Below are positions 23,046 to 30,381 of a DNA stretch of 64,000 bases, piece after piece (the first letter of the stretch is position 1; each line of letters begins with the position of its first letter). Below the pieces are notes generated by a model. That model saw nothing but the letters and a program-made list of their open reading frames with translations, was not told the origin of the DNA and did no database searches. The stretch comes from Methylomonas koyamae (lineage in GTDB: Bacteria; Pseudomonadota; Gammaproteobacteria; Methylococcales; Methylomonadaceae). Location of the stretch: positions 1-64,000 of the forward strand of contig NZ_PPPU01000018.1 of assembly GCF_006483455.1 (NCBI RefSeq). Direction: 5' to 3'. The translations under genes and the position numbers were made by a program.

Positions 23046-23791
23046 ACTTGATGTTTATGGCTGTGGGCCGGATCGTGGATCAGGTTGCGGATCACCACCG
23101 AGGCGCACACCCCGCCGAACGCCGCCGGCAAATAGGAAATCGTACCGTAGGCCGACTTTTTGTAATTACTGCCGTCGGTGAACATCAACGAATCTTTATT
23201 CACCACTTCCGGCGAAAACACCACCTTTACGCCGCGGCTGATGCCGTGTTTGCGCAAGCGGACGCGGATGAACTGGGCGAACGGACAGTTATAGGTCTTG
23301 GAAATATCCACCACCTTGAGATGGGTCGGGTCCATCTTGCCGCCGGCGCCCATCGAGCTGACGATCTTCATCTTGCGGCTTTTGGCGGCACGGATTAAAT
23401 GGATTTTTGGCGTCAGACTGTCGATGGCGTCGACGATGTAATCGTAATGGGTGTTCAACAGTTCGGCGGCGGTGTCCGGGGTGATGAATTCGTGGCGGAT
23501 GTGCAGTTTCAAATCCGGATTGATCGCCAATAAACGCTCGCCCATGATGTCGGCCTTGGATTGGCCGTGGGTCGTTGCTAAGGCCGGTAACTGGCGGTTG
23601 CGGTTGCTGGGGTCGACCACATCGCCGTCGACGATGGTCATCTCGCCGACGCCGGCCCGGCAGATGAATTCGGCAGCAAATGAACCGACGCCGCCCATGC
23701 CCACTACCAATACATGGGATTGCTGGAGCTTATCCAGCTTGGGTTTGCCGATCAGCAATTCGGTACGGGACAGCCAGCTTAAATCAGTCAT
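23042..23791 (-). CDS. tcdA: tRNA threonylcarbamoyladenosine dehydratase TcdA
   Basis: A 249-residue E1-like enzyme that cyclises t6A37 of tRNA to ct6A using ATP. The nucleotide-binding VVGMGGVGSFAAE and the VDGDVVDPSNRNRQ block are diagnostic, as is YIVDAIDSLTPKIHLI. KTYNCPFAQFIRVRLRK is close to the TcdA consensus. The ATG at 23791 overlaps the TatD-family stop by a few bases. It modifies the same nucleotide that TsaE acts on elsewhere in the window, although the genes are not linked. Confidence 0.92.
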   Translation of the reverse strand: MTDLSWLSRTELLIGKPKLDKLQQSHVLVVGMGGVGSFAAEFICRAGVGEMTIVDGDVVDPSNRNRQLPALATTHGQSKADIMGERLLAINPDLKLHIRHEFITPDTAAELLNTHYDYIVDAIDSLTPKIHLIRAAKSRKMKIVSSMGAGGKMDPTHLKVVDISKTYNCPFAQFIRVRLRKHGISRGVKVVFSPEVVNKDSLMFTDGSNYKKSAYGTISYLPAAFGGVCASVVIRNLIHDPAHSHKHQV

Positions 23792-24479
23792 GCAAAAACA
23801 CGCGGGTAAAGTTACGGTGCAGTTCGGCGCTGAGCGCACCGACATCGAGGCCGAGTATTTTAGCCGCAGCCGCGTAGATTTGCGCGATGCTGATGTCATC
23901 GGCGGCATCGGTTTCCAGAAACAGCCGATCCAACGGGATGGTCGGCAGGGTTTGACTGGCCCGGCTGTCGGGTTTGAGCAGGGCTTTGCCGAAGGACAAA
24001 TAGCAGCCGGGTTTGATCAGCTGTTGCGCGAGTGCCGGCTTGCCGCTGAAGCCGTGGATAATCCAGGGCTGGGCCGGTTTAAACGCTTTGCGCAACCCCA
24101 ATAATTCGGCAAAGGCGCGGACGCAATGAACGATCAGCGGTTTGCCGAGGCGTTCCGAAAGTTCGATTTGCCAGCTAAATATTTTGCTTTGTGTCGTCAG
24201 TGGGGCGTCTGTGCAGCGATCCAGGCCGCATTCGCCGATGGCAATGACTTGCGGATCGATACATAGGGCTTGTAGCTTTTGCCATGACTGTTCAAGCGGT
24301 TGACGCGCTATGAACCAGGGGTGGATGCCGATGCTGACATAGCGATTTGGCTCCGCTGTTTCCGATTGCAAATAGAGGCCGTCGACAACGGTGCTGATAT
24401 CCAGGCTTGAAATCCGGCAGCCGGTTGCTGGACGGTCCGCGTGGCAGTGTATGTCAATCAGCGGATGTGGCATTAACAT
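23784..24479 (-). CDS. TatD-family metal-dependent hydrolase
   Basis: A 231-residue TIM-barrel hydrolase. Metal-binding motifs are LIDIHCHAD at the N-terminus, IGECGLDR, PLIVHCVRAF, IHGFSGKP and FLETDAAD near the end. E. coli TatD relatives are 3'-5' exonucleases or deacylases; the exact activity cannot be told. It is shorter than TatD (about 260). The MLMPHP start at 24479 is preferred; a longer frame to 24524 would nearly touch the NACHT gene. It is 60 bases downstream of the NACHT gene and overlaps tcdA. Confidence 0.85.
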   Translation of the reverse strand: MLMPHPLIDIHCHADRPATGCRISSLDISTVVDGLYLQSETAEPNRYVSIGIHPWFIARQPLEQSWQKLQALCIDPQVIAIGECGLDRCTDAPLTTQSKIFSWQIELSERLGKPLIVHCVRAFAELLGLRKAFKPAQPWIIHGFSGKPALAQQLIKPGCYLSFGKALLKPDSRASQTLPTIPLDRLFLETDAADDISIAQIYAAAAKILGLDVGALSAELHRNFTRVFLHD

Positions 24480-24539
24480 CGCTTTGTCGCTGCTACAAGT
24501 TTGCCGTATGGCGAGTAAGCTCAAATTCGATCAAGTCGG

Positions 24540-27104
24540 CTAGCCATTGCTTGGCATGCCAATTATTTTCAAGTCTTGGCGATGTGCCAAAGGAGAGAAA
24601 TCTGTAATTGGTGAGCCGGTTAGGTCCAGATATCTGAGATTCGGCAGGTTAATTAGCGGACTTAGGTCGGATACAAGGCTGTTGCTAATTTCGAGGCGGA
24701 AAAGCTCCTTTATTCCGCTCAAAGGCGCTAGGTCGGAAATTTTGGTATTCCTAATAATGACTGTTTTCAGTTTGGATAATTTGCTGAGAGGACTTAAATC
24801 CGTTATGGGTGTGCTTTCCAATATTAAAATCTGAAGATTGTTCAAGAGTTTCAGTGGTTCAAGATTTTGGATTCCATGGCAACTCAAAATGCTCAAACTA
24901 TCCAATTCGGTTAAGGCAGTTAGTGGACCTACATCGGTAACTGCCGGGCATCGGAGTAACATTAAATCTTTTAGCCGTTTAAGATGGGTGATAGGCTTTA
25001 GGTCGTAAATTCGATCGGAAGTTAGAGTTAAGCACTCTATGCCGGTCAAATGAAAGAAAGAGTCAAAATGCTGCGAATTAGGTTGCCATAGATGAAGTGT
25101 CTTCAATCGGGGTAAGCTTGCCAAAGGACTAAAGTCGCTGGCTTGTACCAAAATAAGAAACAGTTCTTCGATAGAATCTATGCCTGTAAGTAACGATAAG
25201 TCGTCAACAACTGGACCACTTAGGCTCAGGGTTCGGAGATGTTTTTGTTCTGATAGCCAGTTGCGAGCCCAATATGCTACTCGTCCAGGCAGGTCGCCTG
25301 AGTTGTTGGAGTTGCCGGCGTAGAGCAATGTGCTCGTGATGTCGCCAGCCTCGCCAGCTAGATCCAGACAACGGTAAACCGCATCTTTTCGCAACTCCTC
25401 GGACAATCCAGAGTGGAGATCGATAATAAGTTTGACCAGCAAACGGGGTGCCGAGAGCTGCTTACGCCTTTCGATCCAGCGACTCGGATTTGTAGGGCCT
25501 AGCAGTAGGCCGTCGAAATAAAAACAATCACGAAACAAAGTTTTGACCCAGCGTGGATATTTGCTGGCGCATATTTCAAATAGGAACACCAACGTTTCGG
25601 TCCATTGGGGTTGGTTCGCAATATTCCGTAAAAAATCGCGATCGATGCTCGGATTGATGTCGCTATGGCCCTCGGCAGTCCATTCCGGACTAATAATCAG
25701 CTCCGACAAATAAAGGGCGGCAAAATATTCCTGAAACGACAAGTGAATAAAAGCGTAGCGACCTTCGCCGCGCGGTAACAGCAGGCCGCTACGTTCGCCG
25801 ATCAATTTTAGGTAGGCAGTTGCAAAGGATTGGTCTGCGGCATAGCTGCTATCGGCCATCGCCGCGTTGATCCAGGCCAGTACCTCGTTTTCCTCGGCCA
25901 ATATCGCTTGGTCCGACGGTTCGTTCTGCTTGCTTTCGTTACGGCGTAGTTGTAACTGGAAGCCGACGTGCGCCAACCAACGCTTTTTTTGCTCTAGCGG
26001 GAAATCCAGGCTGGTGTTCAGGCGGCGATGCTCGTCTATCGATTGCAGATAGGCCTTGGCGATTTCCTCGTAAAGCAAGGCTTTGCCATGCGGCAAGTTG
26101 GCCAGTACGCGATAGATCAACGCCATCATCGTCAGCAAATTAGGGGTGCGGGCCAAGCGTTGGGTGTAAGGGTTTTCGCGTATGCGTGCAATAAGCTCGC
26201 GCGCTTTGCGCTCCGCCTCTAGCGTGCTGGTTTCGCGTAACACATACCAGTTGTAAGCAAACGCTTCGATTTGCGCGTCATTGAACGGAGATAAATACAG
26301 CAGTTTTGGGAACCCGTCGGCCTGGAAGCTGCCTTTTTCTCTGATCCGAGCAAGTATGTCGTCGCGAGCGACGAGTTTGCTGTCGAAGGGATCGCTGAAG
26401 TGGCTGAGGGTATTGATATCCCTCGATTCGACAATCCGATCGAAGGGCACTTCGTCGTAGCCAACCAGACGCGACGTCAACAACCAGACGCAGTCCGGGT
26501 AGCGTTGCATCCCTTCCCAGACTGCTTGGCGGAGGCGCTTGCGTAACGATTGGTCGACGATTTCGTCGATGCCGTCCAATAACATTAGAGCTTGTCCCGA
26601 TACCAAGAGGCTTTCCAATGCTTCTGGATGGTCGGACATCGGCGCAGAGACGCCGTGGCGTAACCAAGCCGACAGCAAATCGGCAAATGTGTTGACCGCG
26701 CTCAGATGCAGCTCGCGCAGAACCATAGGGATTGGGACCAAGGGCCCCATGCGTTGGCACCAGCGGTCGTCAATTTGGTTGGCAAAGCTCCAGGCCAGCC
26801 AGTTAATTAGCGTTGATTTGCCGCTACCTGGGTCGCCAAGTAGCACTAGTCGACGTTCGCGCTCCAAGGCTGCGAGGGCTGATTCGGTTTGTGGCCAATT
26901 TTCCAGGTTGGTGTCGGCGCTAATCGGGCTGGTGCAGACTTGCGGCTGCACATAGAGCCGGTCGATGGCGACGTCCGGGTTTTCTTGCAAATGGGGTAAG
27001 CCCAGAAAACGGACGTAGCCGTGCCATTTCAATACTTCGCTCAAGTAATTAATCAATACCGAGTTGCGTCTGGGCTCGGGGAAGGCGAACGATGTACTAC
27101 TCAT
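24540..27104 (-). CDS. NACHT-domain STAND NTPase with C-terminal leucine-rich repeats (bacterial NLR-like)
   Basis: An 854-residue protein. After a short N-terminal region (1-85) with no recognisable effector domain comes a NACHT NTPase: Walker A GDPGSGKST at about 90-98, Walker B LMLLDGIDEI at about 174-183, sensor 1 LLTSRLVGYDE near 207. The winged-helix signature FIHLSFQEYFAALYL follows near residue 450. Residues 628-850 are nine or ten leucine-rich repeats of 21-23 residues of internalin type (ITDLSPLxxLxxLxxLxL). This is the architecture of animal NLRs, and bacterial NACHT proteins include anti-phage members. The start is ATG at 27104, overlapping the KAP stop as ATGA. The LRR part is visibly richer in A/T than the neighbouring genes. 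Confidence 0.9.
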   Translation of the reverse strand: MSSTSFAFPEPRRNSVLINYLSEVLKWHGYVRFLGLPHLQENPDVAIDRLYVQPQVCTSPISADTNLENWPQTESALAALERERRLVLLGDPGSGKSTLINWLAWSFANQIDDRWCQRMGPLVPIPMVLRELHLSAVNTFADLLSAWLRHGVSAPMSDHPEALESLLVSGQALMLLDGIDEIVDQSLRKRLRQAVWEGMQRYPDCVWLLTSRLVGYDEVPFDRIVESRDINTLSHFSDPFDSKLVARDDILARIREKGSFQADGFPKLLYLSPFNDAQIEAFAYNWYVLRETSTLEAERKARELIARIRENPYTQRLARTPNLLTMMALIYRVLANLPHGKALLYEEIAKAYLQSIDEHRRLNTSLDFPLEQKKRWLAHVGFQLQLRRNESKQNEPSDQAILAEENEVLAWINAAMADSSYAADQSFATAYLKLIGERSGLLLPRGEGRYAFIHLSFQEYFAALYLSELIISPEWTAEGHSDINPSIDRDFLRNIANQPQWTETLVFLFEICASKYPRWVKTLFRDCFYFDGLLLGPTNPSRWIERRKQLSAPRLLVKLIIDLHSGLSEELRKDAVYRCLDLAGEAGDITSTLLYAGNSNNSGDLPGRVAYWARNWLSEQKHLRTLSLSGPVVDDLSLLTGIDSIEELFLILVQASDFSPLASLPRLKTLHLWQPNSQHFDSFFHLTGIECLTLTSDRIYDLKPITHLKRLKDLMLLRCPAVTDVGPLTALTELDSLSILSCHGIQNLEPLKLLNNLQILILESTPITDLSPLSKLSKLKTVIIRNTKISDLAPLSGIKELFRLEISNSLVSDLSPLINLPNLRYLDLTGSPITDFSPLAHRQDLKIIGMPSNG

Positions 27105-28519
27105 GATTGGCATTTCAGATAGGGAATAAAGTCGGCGGCAACATGCTGTTCCGCCATGTCGAGCAACAACGGGGCAATCCAGAACAGATTGGCTTCACCC
27201 GGATCCGGATAGTTGGGCTGGACATTGTAGGAGGGGGTGGGCGTACTGGCGTCGCGGATCAGGCTTTCGGGAAGTTGCAGCGCTTTTAGAAAAATGGGTT
27301 TGGTTTCGTCGGAAAGTTCGCTACGCAGCCAGCGCAATAACAGGTTGTACAGTTTGGGCTCGTATTGCCAGCGGACAAATAAATCGTGGTGAAACTGAAA
27401 CACATAAGCCACCAGCAAGAGGTTGCGAAAGTCGCGTTTTTGCAGATTTGGGTCAGTGGTTGCCGGGAGTAAGTCCAGGTGGCGCAGTAAAAAATTCGCC
27501 AAGCCTTTTAACCGGCGCGGATTGGGCGGCAGGCATTTGATCGGAGTACCGTTTTTGTCGATGAATGCCGTCGCAAACAACTGGTTCAGTTGATTGAGGT
27601 CGACAGGCGGATTGTTATGGTTGGCAATTTGACTGCCGATCCAGCCCTGAAGAATTTTTGCCGGATCTTCCGGTAGTGGCAGGCGCCAGACGTTTTGGCA
27701 GATTTTTTCCAGATAGGCCGCGGCGCGGATGCGGGTGATGTGGTCTTGGTTTTCCAGGCTCTTTGGCAGGCGTGACGCGATGGCGTCTTCGACAGCGCGT
27801 TGATTCATACCCAATATGAATACGCAGTTTTCCAAGTGCAGGTAAATTTTCAAGCCTTCCAAAAGTTTGTAGGCTGCTTCCGGCTCGCAGCGGTCCAGAT
27901 CGTCGATAAAAACCACGACTCGTCTTGTCGGCGATTGGTTGTTCTTGTTGCTTGATCCGCGCAGAAGAATATTGATCGCTTCTTGCAGAAATTCCAAAGC
28001 GGTGTCCGTGTTAAGTTTGTTGGCGAGATGGTCTTTTTCCCATTGCTCGCCGAATGCCTGAACTTTTGCCGCATCGGGCATGACCTCAAATTGGATGAAT
28101 TTACCGATGTCGGAGAGCATAGCCAGTAAACTTCTGATGGTGACGTCGCCAATCTTCTTCAGCCAGTTTGCGGTTTTGGCTATGCGGCCGAATTCTTCGC
28201 GAATCGCGGACAATAAGGCGACTACAGGAGCGGCTTCGTTTTGGTAGCGCCAGGCATCGAACCATACCGTGACTGGATTAAATAATTTGGGTACTTGCGG
28301 ATCGACGTTCAGCCGTTCTTCAGTGTGGTCTAGTAAATTTCGCAATTGCTTCAGAAAACTGGTCTTGCCTGCACCCCAGTCGCCATGAATGCCCAATACC
28401 AGCGGTGTTGGGCAGGTCAGTATCCGATAGGCCAGCTCTTCGACGATGTCTTGGCGATTAAGCGCGTCGTGCAGTGTGGGTTCGTCGTCAAGTAGGCCGA
28501 TATGGTTGAGTTCGGGCAT
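27101..28519 (-). CDS. KAP-family P-loop NTPase
   Basis: A 472-residue NTPase of the KAP family. Walker A GIHGDWGAGKTS spans about 43-54, the family motif FDAWRYQ is at 87-93, Walker B VVVFIDDLDRC is at 201-211 and GMNQRAVEDAI near 237-247 is sensor-like. KAP proteins often carry membrane helices inserted after the first strands; here the segment at 117-150 is only moderately hydrophobic, so the protein may be soluble. The phage-exclusion protein PifA is a KAP NTPase. The gene is coupled to the NACHT gene by a 4-base overlap, implying that the two products act together. A TATAAT lies upstream at 28591-28586 (minus). Confidence 0.88.
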   Translation of the reverse strand: MPELNHIGLLDDEPTLHDALNRQDIVEELAYRILTCPTPLVLGIHGDWGAGKTSFLKQLRNLLDHTEERLNVDPQVPKLFNPVTVWFDAWRYQNEAAPVVALLSAIREEFGRIAKTANWLKKIGDVTIRSLLAMLSDIGKFIQFEVMPDAAKVQAFGEQWEKDHLANKLNTDTALEFLQEAINILLRGSSNKNNQSPTRRVVVFIDDLDRCEPEAAYKLLEGLKIYLHLENCVFILGMNQRAVEDAIASRLPKSLENQDHITRIRAAAYLEKICQNVWRLPLPEDPAKILQGWIGSQIANHNNPPVDLNQLNQLFATAFIDKNGTPIKCLPPNPRRLKGLANFLLRHLDLLPATTDPNLQKRDFRNLLLVAYVFQFHHDLFVRWQYEPKLYNLLLRWLRSELSDETKPIFLKALQLPESLIRDASTPTPSYNVQPNYPDPGEANLFWIAPLLLDMAEQHVAADFIPYLKCQS

Positions 28520-28585
28520 GATTGTTTTTCCGTCAAAGCGCGATTAGTGGGGCGGTATAACAAACGGGCTAACATTGCTGGGGGG

Positions 28586-28591
28586 ATTATA
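28586..28591 (-). promoter_or_regulatory. -10 box for the KAP-NACHT operon
   Basis: TATAAT on the minus strand, about 67 bases before the KAP start codon. No good -35 hexamer was found 16-18 bases upstream. The region is shared with the divergent ettA promoter. Confidence 0.45.
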
Positions 28592-28682
28592 CGTCTATCG
28601 GATGCTTGGTGAGATTGCGATAGGGTGTGGCCGGTAATTGGGCTGGGCTTAAACGGAGGCATTCAAATCCGAGATGCCACGG

Positions 28683-28688
28683 TATAAT
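28683..28688 (+). promoter_or_regulatory. -10 box for ettA
   Basis: A TATAAT lies 28 bases before the ettA ATG, in the 197-base divergent region shared with the KAP gene. Confidence 0.5.
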
Positions 28689-28716
28689 GGCTTTTTTATT
28701 CGTTCTGTAGACTGCA

Positions 28717-30381
28717 ATGGCGCAATATATTTTCTCCATGAACCGGGTCGGCAAGGTGGTGCCGCCTAAAAAATACATCCTGAAGGACATCTCGCTGTCG
28801 TTTTTTCCGGGGGCGAAGATCGGTGTGTTGGGCTTGAACGGCTCCGGTAAATCGACGCTGCTGCGGATCATGGCCGGCGTTGACAAGGAAATCGAAGGCG
28901 AAGCGATTCCGCTGAAGGGCATCAACATCGGCTATTTGCCGCAAGAGCCGCAGCTGGATCCGACCAAAAACGTGCGCGGCATCATCGAAGAATCCGTGCG
29001 GCACATCAAGGATGCGCTGGCAAAACTGGATGCGGTTTACGCGGCCTATGCCGATCCGGATGCCGATTTCGATAAATTGGCCGCCGAACAGGCCAAATTG
29101 GAAGACATCATCAACGCTTGTGACGGCCATAACCTGGATCGGCAACTGGAAATTGCCGCCGATGCGCTGCGATTGCCGGATTGGGATGCCGACATCAACA
29201 AGCTGTCCGGTGGCGAAAAGCGTCGCGTCGCGTTGTGCCGCTTGTTGCTGTCCAAACCCGATATGCTGTTGCTGGACGAGCCGACCAACCACTTGGACGC
29301 CGAATCGGTTGCCTGGCTGGAGCGCTTCCTGCACGATTACACCGGTACCGTCGTTGCGGTAACCCACGACCGTTACTTTCTGGATAACGTCGCCGGCTGG
29401 ATTCTGGAACTGGACCGTGGCATGGGTATTCCTTGGGAAGGCAACTATTCGTCCTGGCTGGAACAGAAGGAAAAACGTCTGGAGCTGGAGGAGAAGCAGG
29501 AATCGTCTCGCCAGAAAGCCATGAAGGCCGAATTGGAATGGGTAAGGCAGAATCCGAAAGGTCGCCACGCCAAGAGCAAGGCGCGTCTGGCCCGCTTTGA
29601 AGAGTTGTCGTCGGTGGAAGTGCAACAGCGCAACGAAACTCAGGAAATTTATATTCCGCCCGGACCGCGCCTGGGCGACGTGGTGATTGAGGCAGACAAT
29701 ATCAGCAAAGGCTTCGGCGATCGCTTGTTGATCAACAACTTGAGCTTCAAATTGCCGCCGGGCGGCATCGTCGGGATTATCGGCCCGAACGGCGCCGGTA
29801 AAACCACGCTGTTTAAAATGATGGCCGGCATGGAGCAGCCGGATTCAGGTGCGTTTAATTTCGGCCAAACCGTGCAGTTGTCCTACGTCGAGCAGTTCCG
29901 CGACGATATGGATAACAACAAAACTGTTTGGGAAGAGATTTCCGACGGTCTGGACATGATTACGGTCGGCAAGTACGAAACGCCGTCGCGCGCTTACTGC
30001 GGGCGCTTCAACTTTAAGGGGGCGGATCAGCAAAAACGCATCGGCGACTTGTCCGGCGGCGAACGCAACCGCGTACATCTGGCCAAGCTGTTGAAAAGTG
30101 GCGGTAACGTCTTGCTGCTCGACGAGCCGACCAACGATTTGGACGTCGAAACTTTGCGAGCACTGGAAGAGGCGTTGCTGGGCTTTCCGGGTTGCGCTGT
30201 GGTGATCTCGCACGATCGCTGGTTCCTGGATCGGATTGCCACCCATATGCTGGCGTTCGAAGGCGACAGCGAGGTGGTCTGGTTCGAAGGCAATTACGCC
30301 GATTACGAAGCCGACCGTCATCGCCGGTTGGGAACCGACGCCGATAATCCGCGCCGGATCAAATACAAAAAAATCGGCTAA
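28717..30381 (+). CDS. ettA: Energy-dependent translational throttle protein EttA (ABC-F)
   Basis: A 554-residue ABC-F ATPase that binds the ribosomal E site and gates entry into elongation according to ATP/ADP level. It has two ABC cassettes in one chain with no membrane segment: first Walker [10 protein letters not shown] near residue 40 and signature LSGGEKRR, second Walker [10 protein letters not shown] near residue 357 and signature LSGGERNR. A long charged linker between them includes an arm-like [15 protein letters not shown] stretch. Length and sequence start [13 protein letters not shown] match EttA closely. Confidence 0.95.

What the first reader, a model, noticed from the sequence alone, without database searches (positions are those of the whole stretch)
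24540..28519. Two-gene KAP NTPase / NACHT-LRR NTPase unit: candidate undescribed defence system
Two P-loop NTPases of different families are translationally fused by a 4-base ATGA overlap and are surrounded only by housekeeping genes. The downstream protein has the full NLR plan (NACHT, winged helix with FQEYFAALYL, nine or ten LRRs). The upstream protein is a KAP NTPase. Established knowledge: bacterial NACHT proteins and the KAP protein PifA both include anti-phage members. I do not recognise the pair as a named system. Inference: the LRR protein senses an invader and acts through or with the KAP protein, since neither chain shows a known nuclease, TIR, protease or pore domain.
Basis: partly seen in the sequence, partly recalled or inferred. 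Interest (0 to 1): 0.85.

Follow-up and report, generated by a model that had tools for sequence, protein, structure and literature searches.

The report
Two-gene KAP plus NLR immune module
A methane-eating bacterium carries a pair of genes, one resembling the animal immune sensor NLRC4 and the other a ring-type ATPase, which travel together across many bacterial phyla and inside some bacterial viruses, and so look like a two-part virus-defence system that has not been tested in the laboratory.

Summary
In detail: a KAP NTPase (472 aa) and a NACHT-LRR protein (857 aa) overlap on the minus strand of a Methylomonas contig. The pairing is not chance. Of 80 genome loci fetched with the KAP profile, 51 have a NACHT directly downstream, 4 family members are cut by the contig end, and 25 other-type KAPs have none (5 of them also cut). 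In 398 evenly drawn Pseudomonadota genomes, window included, 8 of 8 informative KAP hits and 8 of 9 informative NACHT hits are paired. KAP and NACHT trees mirror each other (r = 0.92). A strain of the same species has an empty site. Four viral contigs carry the pair; in three it lies beside a phage integrase. The NACHT-LRR model resembles NLRC4/NLRP3, the KAP model RdrA of RADAR. PADLOC models fit the window's KAP over its ATPase domain only. Most likely a two-gene anti-phage module: NLR sensor-switch plus KAP partner. Defence activity, ligand and final step are inferred, not shown. Best filed as a new variant of a known kind (bacterial NLR immunity).

The parts
27101..28519 (-). KAP-family P-loop NTPase, 472 aa, first gene of the pair
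   Evidence: ORF; Pfam KAP_NTPase 3.4e-27; AlphaFold2 model pLDDT 86.5
27677..28453 (-). KAP NTPase domain (residues 23-281) with Walker A GDWGAGKTS and Walker B VVVFIDDLDRCEP
   Evidence: Pfam span; Walker residues invariant in the 45-row alignment, window included
27962..28228 (-). Four-helix region (residues 98-186) between strand 2 and the Walker B strand; partly low confidence; same place as the partner-binding crown of RdrA (proposed docking surface)
   Evidence: Model secondary structure; RdrA crown described in PMC9994260 passages; the equivalence is inference
24540..27113 (-). NACHT-LRR protein, 857 aa (or 854 aa from the second ATG at 27104), second gene of the pair
   Evidence: ORF; Pfam NACHT 1.1e-8, LRR_4 2.8e-18; model pLDDT 84.6, best matches NLRP3 and NLRC4
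26424..26855 (-). NACHT domain (residues 87-230)
   Evidence: Pfam span; Walker A GDPGSGKST, Walker B LLDGIDE; winged-helix FIHLSFQEYFAA with His457 invariant in the 49-row alignment, window included
24561..25232 (-). Leucine-rich repeats (residues 628-851), SDS22/internalin type, about ten units: proposed sensor
   Evidence: Model strands every 22-23 residues; phmmer matches to internalin A and Roco LRRs
27101..27113 (-). Gene overlap: 13 bases from the first ATG, 4 bases (ATGA) from the second
   Evidence: Sequence
23790..28727 (.). Segment absent or unlike in a strain of the same species (G061): the pair plus a divergent tatD allele
   Evidence: Identity in 100-base steps is 89-99% up to 23764, 54-71% over tatD, and 100% again from 28728; flanks 93.6% and 95.0%. 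Boundaries good to tens of bases
23787..24470 (-). TatD-family hydrolase of the acquired segment; present beside ettA in most of the genus, so probably not part of the system
   Evidence: 54% aa identity to the tatD of the same species; no tatD found in the fetched loci of other pairs

Best explanation
A two-gene anti-phage module. SHOWN: two P-loop NTPases, a KAP protein without transmembrane-like segments in its NTPase core and an NLR-type NACHT-LRR protein, inherited together as a unit, horizontally mobile, and carried in some temperate phages next to the integrase. INFERRED: the NACHT-LRR protein rests as an ADP-bound, closed monomer like NLRC4; a phage product or phage-altered host product bound by the LRRs (or by the other C-terminal regions found in relatives) opens it, ATP replaces ADP and it oligomerises. 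Having no effector domain of its own, it acts through the co-translated KAP protein, which forms an RdrA-like ring whose four-helix insertion docks on the NACHT assembly. Switching on the KAP ATPase then stops the infected cell or the phage. The chemical step of that last stage is unknown.
For: Pairing: of 80 fetched loci 51 paired, 4 family KAPs cut at the contig end, 25 other-type KAPs without NACHT, 5 of these also cut; window included, 8 of 8 informative KAP hits and 8 of 9 informative NACHT hits in 398 genomes; 4 of 4 family KAPs in viral contigs paired against 0 of 14 other KAPs there, one of them cut. Mirror-tree r = 0.92, permutation maximum 0.19. On the KAP tree the unpaired label needs 2 changes, shuffled mean 34. 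Empty site in the same species. Phage cargo: pair directly after an integrase in L159-L161 and in a Pseudomonas chromosome L050; two of the phage records match phage structural genes elsewhere. Conserved core with changing C-terminus: LRR_4 in 27 of 49, 3 changes of LRR state on the core tree. NLRC4/NLRP3-like fold, first 85 residues without a domain of effector size. KAP fold nearest to RdrA. Restriction, DISARM or type IV restriction neighbours in L035, L037, L042, L079.
Against: No experiment. Defence neighbours are a minority of loci; the window's own pair is among housekeeping genes. About 12 of 352 neighbours had PADLOC hits below 1e-100, some of them generic, against 0 of 51 control proteins from the window, whose best hit was 1.8e-98, so enrichment is suggestive only. 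No recurrent third gene that could serve as effector. Contact of the two proteins was not modelled. The best RdrA match has TM-score only 0.47. One NACHT relative has no KAP (G338), and one pair has a gutted KAP (G477). Of 4 plasmid records with a KAP match, the three opened hold one IS-broken pair and two KAPs with no NACHT annotated beside them.
Confidence: 0.66

Rival explanations
1. The NACHT-LRR protein is the whole defence device and the KAP protein is its regulator or chaperone, for instance keeping the NLR off or remodelling it after firing.
For: Strict pairing and overlapping genes also fit a regulator. KAP shows no enzymatic domain beyond the NTPase. G477 keeps an intact NACHT next to a KAP with a large internal deletion.
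Against: The NACHT protein has no effector domain that was recognised, and the one unpaired relative, G338, has an extra N-terminal region of about 170 residues instead of a KAP neighbour, as if the KAP filled the effector place. That region could not be identified.
Confidence: 0.2
2. A conflict system aimed at plasmids or at kin (an allorecognition or toxin-type pair) rather than at phages.
For: NACHT proteins serve in fungal hetero-incompatibility (PMC7159879 passage). Only a few loci were shown to lie by known anti-phage genes.
Against: Carriage beside the integrase of temperate phages fits superinfection exclusion best; among neighbours only one family recurs in as many as 3 loci.
Confidence: 0.1
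3. An ordinary cellular signalling or transcriptional regulator of STAND type, not a conflict system.
For: Surrounded by housekeeping genes in the window and in several relatives.
Against: Rare and patchy (8 of 398 genomes with the pair, window included, and 3 more cut by contig ends), acquired horizontally within a species, no DNA-binding domain among Pfam hits, found in phages.
Confidence: 0.04

Closest known systems
Bacterial NLRs / bNACHT proteins (antiviral NACHT proteins)
   Same: NACHT core with Walker A/B, winged-helix histidine, C-terminal LRRs; tripartite plan minus the effector. PMC12169576 passages say that bacterial NACHT proteins with LRRs are true NLRs and that clade 14 lacks a readily discernible effector domain.
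   Different: A KAP partner gene next to nearly every relative; no N-terminal effector domain recognised on the NACHT chain. Whether the family falls in a numbered bNACHT clade was not tested (the 2023 Cell paper is not held).
RADAR (RdrA/RdrB)
   Same: Two-gene module whose ATPase is the nearest solved structure to the KAP (1e-6); four helices sit where RdrA has its partner-binding crown.
   Different: Partner is an NLR, not a deaminase; RdrA score 11.2 bits against a cut-off of 600; 472 aa against chains of about 780-850.
PifA, QatA, Tmn and PADLOC candidate PDC-S20 (KAP-type defence proteins)
   Same: KAP NTPase domain; known or candidate anti-phage proteins.
   Different: For the window's KAP the match covers only the domain; QatA 94.3 bits against 600. 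Tmn is described as a KAP NTPase with two unusual transmembrane domains (PMC11846954 passage); no TM-like segment between Walker A and B in 48 of 48 paired KAPs. No Qat genes recognised besides the resident tatD.
Mammalian NLRC4 / NLRP3
   Same: Full-length fold match, NACHT to LRR (NLRP3 1.4e-15; NLRC4 7.3e-15, TM 0.48).
   Different: No CARD or pyrin domain found; partner is a KAP ATPase; LRRs are of the bacterial SDS22/internalin type.

Membership tests
Bacterial NLR (NACHT-LRR) protein | NACHT NTPase with intact Walker A and B | tested here: met
   Pfam NACHT over cut-off; Walker residues invariant in the 49-row alignment
Bacterial NLR (NACHT-LRR) protein | C-terminal leucine-rich repeats and NLR-like overall fold | tested here: met
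   LRR_4 2.8e-18; Foldseek NLRP3/NLRC4
Bacterial NLR (NACHT-LRR) protein | N-terminal effector domain on the same chain, as in many tested bNACHT proteins | tested here: not met
   Residues 1-85 hold short helices only; no Pfam domain there at 0.1 apart from P-loop overlaps
Bacterial NLR (NACHT-LRR) protein | Protection against phage | not testable with these tools
   needs experiment
KAP NTPase family | KAP P-loop domain above the curated cut-off | tested here: met
   95.9 bits against 20
KAP NTPase family | Transmembrane segments inserted in the P-loop domain (recalled as typical of many KAPs, not of all) | tested here: not met
   0 of 48 paired KAP rows against 12 of 46 unpaired rows (a few of the latter duplicate loci of one gene) have a TM-like segment between Walker A and B
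PADLOC PDC-S20 | Full-length match to the model | tested here: inconclusive
   103.9 bits but only positions 8-236 of 464; 45 of 45 rows match, best 2.7e-37; PADLOC's acceptance cut-offs not visible
Qat (QatABCD) | QatA above its equivalog cut-off, with QatB, QatC, QatD | tested here: not met
   94.3 bits against 600; one window protein matches QatD (4.1e-16), by its TatD-like sequence presumably the adjacent tatD, which is the gene normally at this site
RADAR | RdrA equivalog with an RdrB deaminase gene | tested here: not met
   11.2 bits against 600; the next gene is NACHT-LRR. RdrB was not searched for elsewhere in the genome
Avs / AVAST | Match to antiviral STAND models | tested here: not met
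   No such PADLOC model matched P0001 at 0.1 or any of the 33 rows at 0.001; that PADLOC holds Avs models is recalled

The most novel reading that the evidence does not exclude
A split, two-component bacterial inflammasome: an NLR with exchangeable C-terminal sensors and no effector of its own nucleates or docks onto an RdrA-like KAP ring, which is itself a new kind of immune executor. This would be the first NLR system known to me whose effector is a second, dedicated NTPase, and temperate phages use it against rivals.
Probability: 0.35. Interest if true: 0.82.

Novelty: new variant of a known kind. Interest (0 to 1): 0.62.

Why it matters
Bacterial NLRs usually carry their killing domain on the same chain (recalled, and passages of PMC10952713 and PMC10907252). 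A conserved pair in which the NLR shows none, and a KAP ATPase stands next to it, makes a direct test possible of how KAP proteins (PifA, QatA, Tmn, RdrA) take part in immunity, and links NLR-type sensing with RADAR-type rings. The phage-borne Pseudomonas copies are short, defined modules that can be cloned at once.

Tried and rejected
1. TatD as a third component (it would suggest Qat): rejected. tatD lies beside ettA within 1.1 kb in 23 of 36 other genomes of the genus, with no room for the pair, and no tatD or tcdA was found in the fetched loci of other pairs.

2. Membrane insertion by an amphipathic helix in the KAP insert: a first look picked the best window in each protein and seemed positive for 48 of 48, but against windows of equal size elsewhere in the same protein only 6 of 48 stood out at 5% (median 0.26). 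Dropped.

3. A conserved third gene: the only neighbour family shared by three or more loci is a hemerythrin/regulator-like group in 3 loci. None.

4. Plasmid and phage collections: 4 KAP-like records among 72,556 plasmids; H1, H2 and H4 were opened, H3 (annotated qatA) was not; one IS-interrupted pair. No P0001 match in plasmids at 1e-30. 2 KAP-like records among 50,697 phages; the one opened (H6) has no NACHT beside the KAP; H5 was not opened.

5. Promoter scan of the segment: 3 sites against 4.3 expected, none before the KAP. Helicase ResIII and Terminase_6N profiles found nothing in the four viral records.

6. The VIA-align library was not available.

7. The N-terminal region of the unpaired NACHT relative (G338) gave no solved-structure match better than E 1.5.

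Mended on checking against the calls: the 25 unpaired loci include 5 cut by the contig end, the whole-genome counts include the window's own genome, and the neighbour count is about 12, not 11. None of this changes the odds.
Full report
WHAT IS THERE. Window 24540-28519, minus strand, holds a KAP NTPase gene (27101-28519) followed by a NACHT-LRR gene (24540-27113). The genes overlap by 13 bases from the first possible start, or by ATGA from the second. Pfam places KAP_NTPase, NACHT and LRR_4 above their cut-offs. The NTPase motifs are intact, and His457 of the winged helix is invariant in an alignment of 49 rows, window included. The NACHT-LRR model (pLDDT 84.6) has no N-terminal domain of effector size and about ten LRR strands; its best full-length matches are NLRP3 and NLRC4. 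The KAP model (pLDDT 86.5) is nearest to RdrA of RADAR (E 1e-6, TM 0.47). Both proteins also match phage protein families of unknown function (phrog_8614 at 5.3e-26, phrog_18297 at 7.1e-13).

WHERE IT IS. The genome is a Methylomonas: G023, of the same genus, is the same contig as Methylomonas fluvii EbB (L032 and L057). G061, of the same species by the tool's label, lacks the pair at this site: flanks match at 93.6% and 95.0%, identity drops near 23790 and returns at 28728, and tatD and ettA stand about 165 bases apart. The exchanged segment, about 4.9 kb, includes a tatD only 54% identical in protein to that of G061. In 23 of 36 other genomes of the genus tatD and ettA lie within 1.1 kb of each other, so no pair fits there; in G009 the gap is 6.2 kb with other genes; in 9 the two lie apart or on different contigs and in 3 one was not found. 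Whether G061 has the pair elsewhere was not tested.

IS THE PAIR REAL. Five of 36 genomes of the genus carry a pair (G000, G002, G019, G023, G035), at four different sites between unrelated genes; G023 and G035 share one. Of them 51 have a NACHT ORF directly downstream on the same strand (L057 among them is a copy of L032); 4 (L043, L059, L077, L108) are cut at the contig edge; 25 have none, and 5 of these (L099, L100, L104, L107, L112) also run off their contigs. The 25 are other KAP types: on a KAP tree of 102 rows the unpaired label needs 2 changes (shuffled mean 34; the paired label needs 6 because cut and broken rows count as not paired; quick tree with some long branches), and the one row labelled unpaired that lies nearest to paired ones is L108, whose contig ends inside the KAP. 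Distances: 17 of 54 pairs (50 of these loci plus L031-L034) are exactly -4 and 47 of 54 within 30 bases; most of the rest are long overlaps of mechanical ORFs, one is a gap of 264. By record titles the paired loci fall in about 13 phylum-level lineages; many are metagenome bins, so single placements may be wrong.

An even draw of 398 Pseudomonadota genomes, not chosen through the pair, was searched from both sides. The window's genome is one of them. KAP side: 9 hits, of which 7 (window included) have a NACHT within about 210 bases by profile coordinates, one (G477) has a KAP with a large internal deletion next to an intact NACHT, and one (G342) ends at the contig edge. NACHT side: 11 hits, of which 8 are next to a KAP, two (G431, G535) end 243 and 301 bases from the contig edge, and one (G338, the weakest) has no KAP but about 170 extra N-terminal residues. 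An earlier draw of 229 Gammaproteobacteria gave KAP hits in 11 genomes at 1e-15, but only the window and G135 at full length; G135 has the NACHT about 66 bases on. The unit is thus rare, patchy and tightly linked. Distances in the KAP and NACHT trees agree (r = 0.92 for 49 pairs, maximum of 2000 permutations 0.19).

MOBILE ELEMENTS. Of 18 KAP loci found in viral contigs, four (L159-L162) belong to this family and all four have the NACHT-LRR next to the KAP; the other 14 have none, one of these being cut. In L159-L161 the pair follows directly on a tyrosine integrase; that of L159 is 73% identical to those of Pseudomonas phages such as H66. In L160 and L161 a gene that reads, by eye, as a phage repressor follows a few kilobases on, on the other strand. 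A Pseudomonas pharyngis chromosome has the same integrase (92%) 37 bases from its pair. Inner stretches of two records match phage genes: tail and tape-measure genes (L177) and major capsid, baseplate and tail-fibre genes (L178), over a small part of the query at 65-78% identity. Terminase_6N found nothing in the four records. A hotspot between cI repressor and integrase of a P2-related phage is described as holding known defence systems (PMC9122126, passages only). This is the best single argument that the pair acts against other phages.

DEFENCE NEIGHBOURS. PADLOC was run on 352 neighbour ORFs (130 aa or more, within 6 kb of 54 pairs). Hits below 1e-100 belong to about 12 proteins by my reading of the listed families, one of them a generic RtcR-like regulator. 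Attributed ones (10 proteins given): type I restriction and methylase (L035, the window's nearest relative), type IIG (L037), DrmA 75 bases downstream (L042; distance), type IV restriction (L079, 9.6e-99), SNF2-type helicases (L098, L110); L079's second protein gave a weaker Mko-type hit, and two of the ten (L081, L075) none at 1e-40. A control of 51 other window proteins had none below 1e-100, its best an RtcR-like regulator at 1.8e-98. The control is small and from one genome, and helicase and regulator models are generic. Many pairs, the window's included, stand among housekeeping genes. Defence-island linkage is suggestive, not strong.

HOW IT MAY WORK. The conserved part is KAP plus the NACHT core; the C-terminus changes. 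LRR_4 matches 27 of 49 NACHT partners at 1e-5, and the LRR state needs 3 changes on the core tree for 47 scored pairs, 26 with and 21 without (that sequence test can miss LRRs). That is the pattern of a sensor being exchanged now and then. The paired KAPs lack transmembrane-like segments between Walker A and B (0 of 48 rows, against 12 of 46 unpaired rows), unlike Tmn (PMC11846954 passage). Four helices (98-118, 124-146, 150-164, 170-186) lie between strand 2 and the Walker B strand. In RdrA a four-helix bundle replacing helix alpha2 forms the crown that makes nearly all contacts with RdrB (PMC9994260 passages). I infer that a KAP ring docks its partner, here the NLR, through this region. That the NLR is the partner is supported by co-inheritance; the docking, the ring and the final act are inference.

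LITERATURE. Seven full-text searches listed no paper whose title or shown start of abstract describes a KAP-NACHT pair. Passages only were read in PMC7159879, PMC10907252, PMC13092281, PMC8195603, PMC12169576, PMC10952713, PMC11846954, PMC9994260 and PMC9122126. PMC8195603 says the KAP ATPase can displace the STAND NTPase in some conflict systems, which is replacement, not pairing. The main bNACHT paper (Cell 2023) is not held, so a mention there cannot be excluded.

VERDICT. Observation confirmed. A well-supported two-gene candidate defence module, unnamed as far as these searches go; a new variant of bacterial NLR immunity. Function and mechanism await experiment.

Noticed in passing
window 23787-24470: tatD is only 54% identical in protein to the tatD of a strain of the same species although ettA next door is about 100% identical: the pair came in with a foreign tatD allele, probably by recombination at flanking genes.
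   Followed up: partly
L118 (G009:C2:2100000-2116000): The same ettA-tatD interval in another Methylomonas is 6.2 kb long and holds other genes, by eye a GGDEF/hemerythrin-like protein, a TetR-like regulator and a transposase: the site takes up unrelated DNA.
   Followed up: no
L126 (Magnetococcus massalia plasmid MAGMO_p1): A KAP-NACHT pair with IS4 and IS1380 transposase genes between and beside its pieces; decayed copy.
   Followed up: no
L201 (G477:C47): Intact NACHT next to a KAP that has lost a large internal part.
   Followed up: partly
L200 4921-8310 (G338): The only unpaired NACHT relative in the phylum sample has about 170 extra N-terminal residues and no KAP; possibly an unrecognised effector domain in place of the KAP partner.
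   Followed up: partly
L065 and L073, ends of the NACHT ORFs: C-termini made of short near-perfect tandem repeats (DRALDR-like, RAMDMA-like), running off the contig ends; unusual sensor repeats.
   Followed up: no
G000:C65:224608-225039 (L132): The window's genome has a second NACHT protein (open frame of 599 aa), far from this family on the tree, with a close relative in G014.
   Followed up: no
L125 (Butyrivibrio plasmid pCY186): A KAP without an annotated NACHT neighbour lies three genes from an mcrC restriction gene.
   Followed up: no
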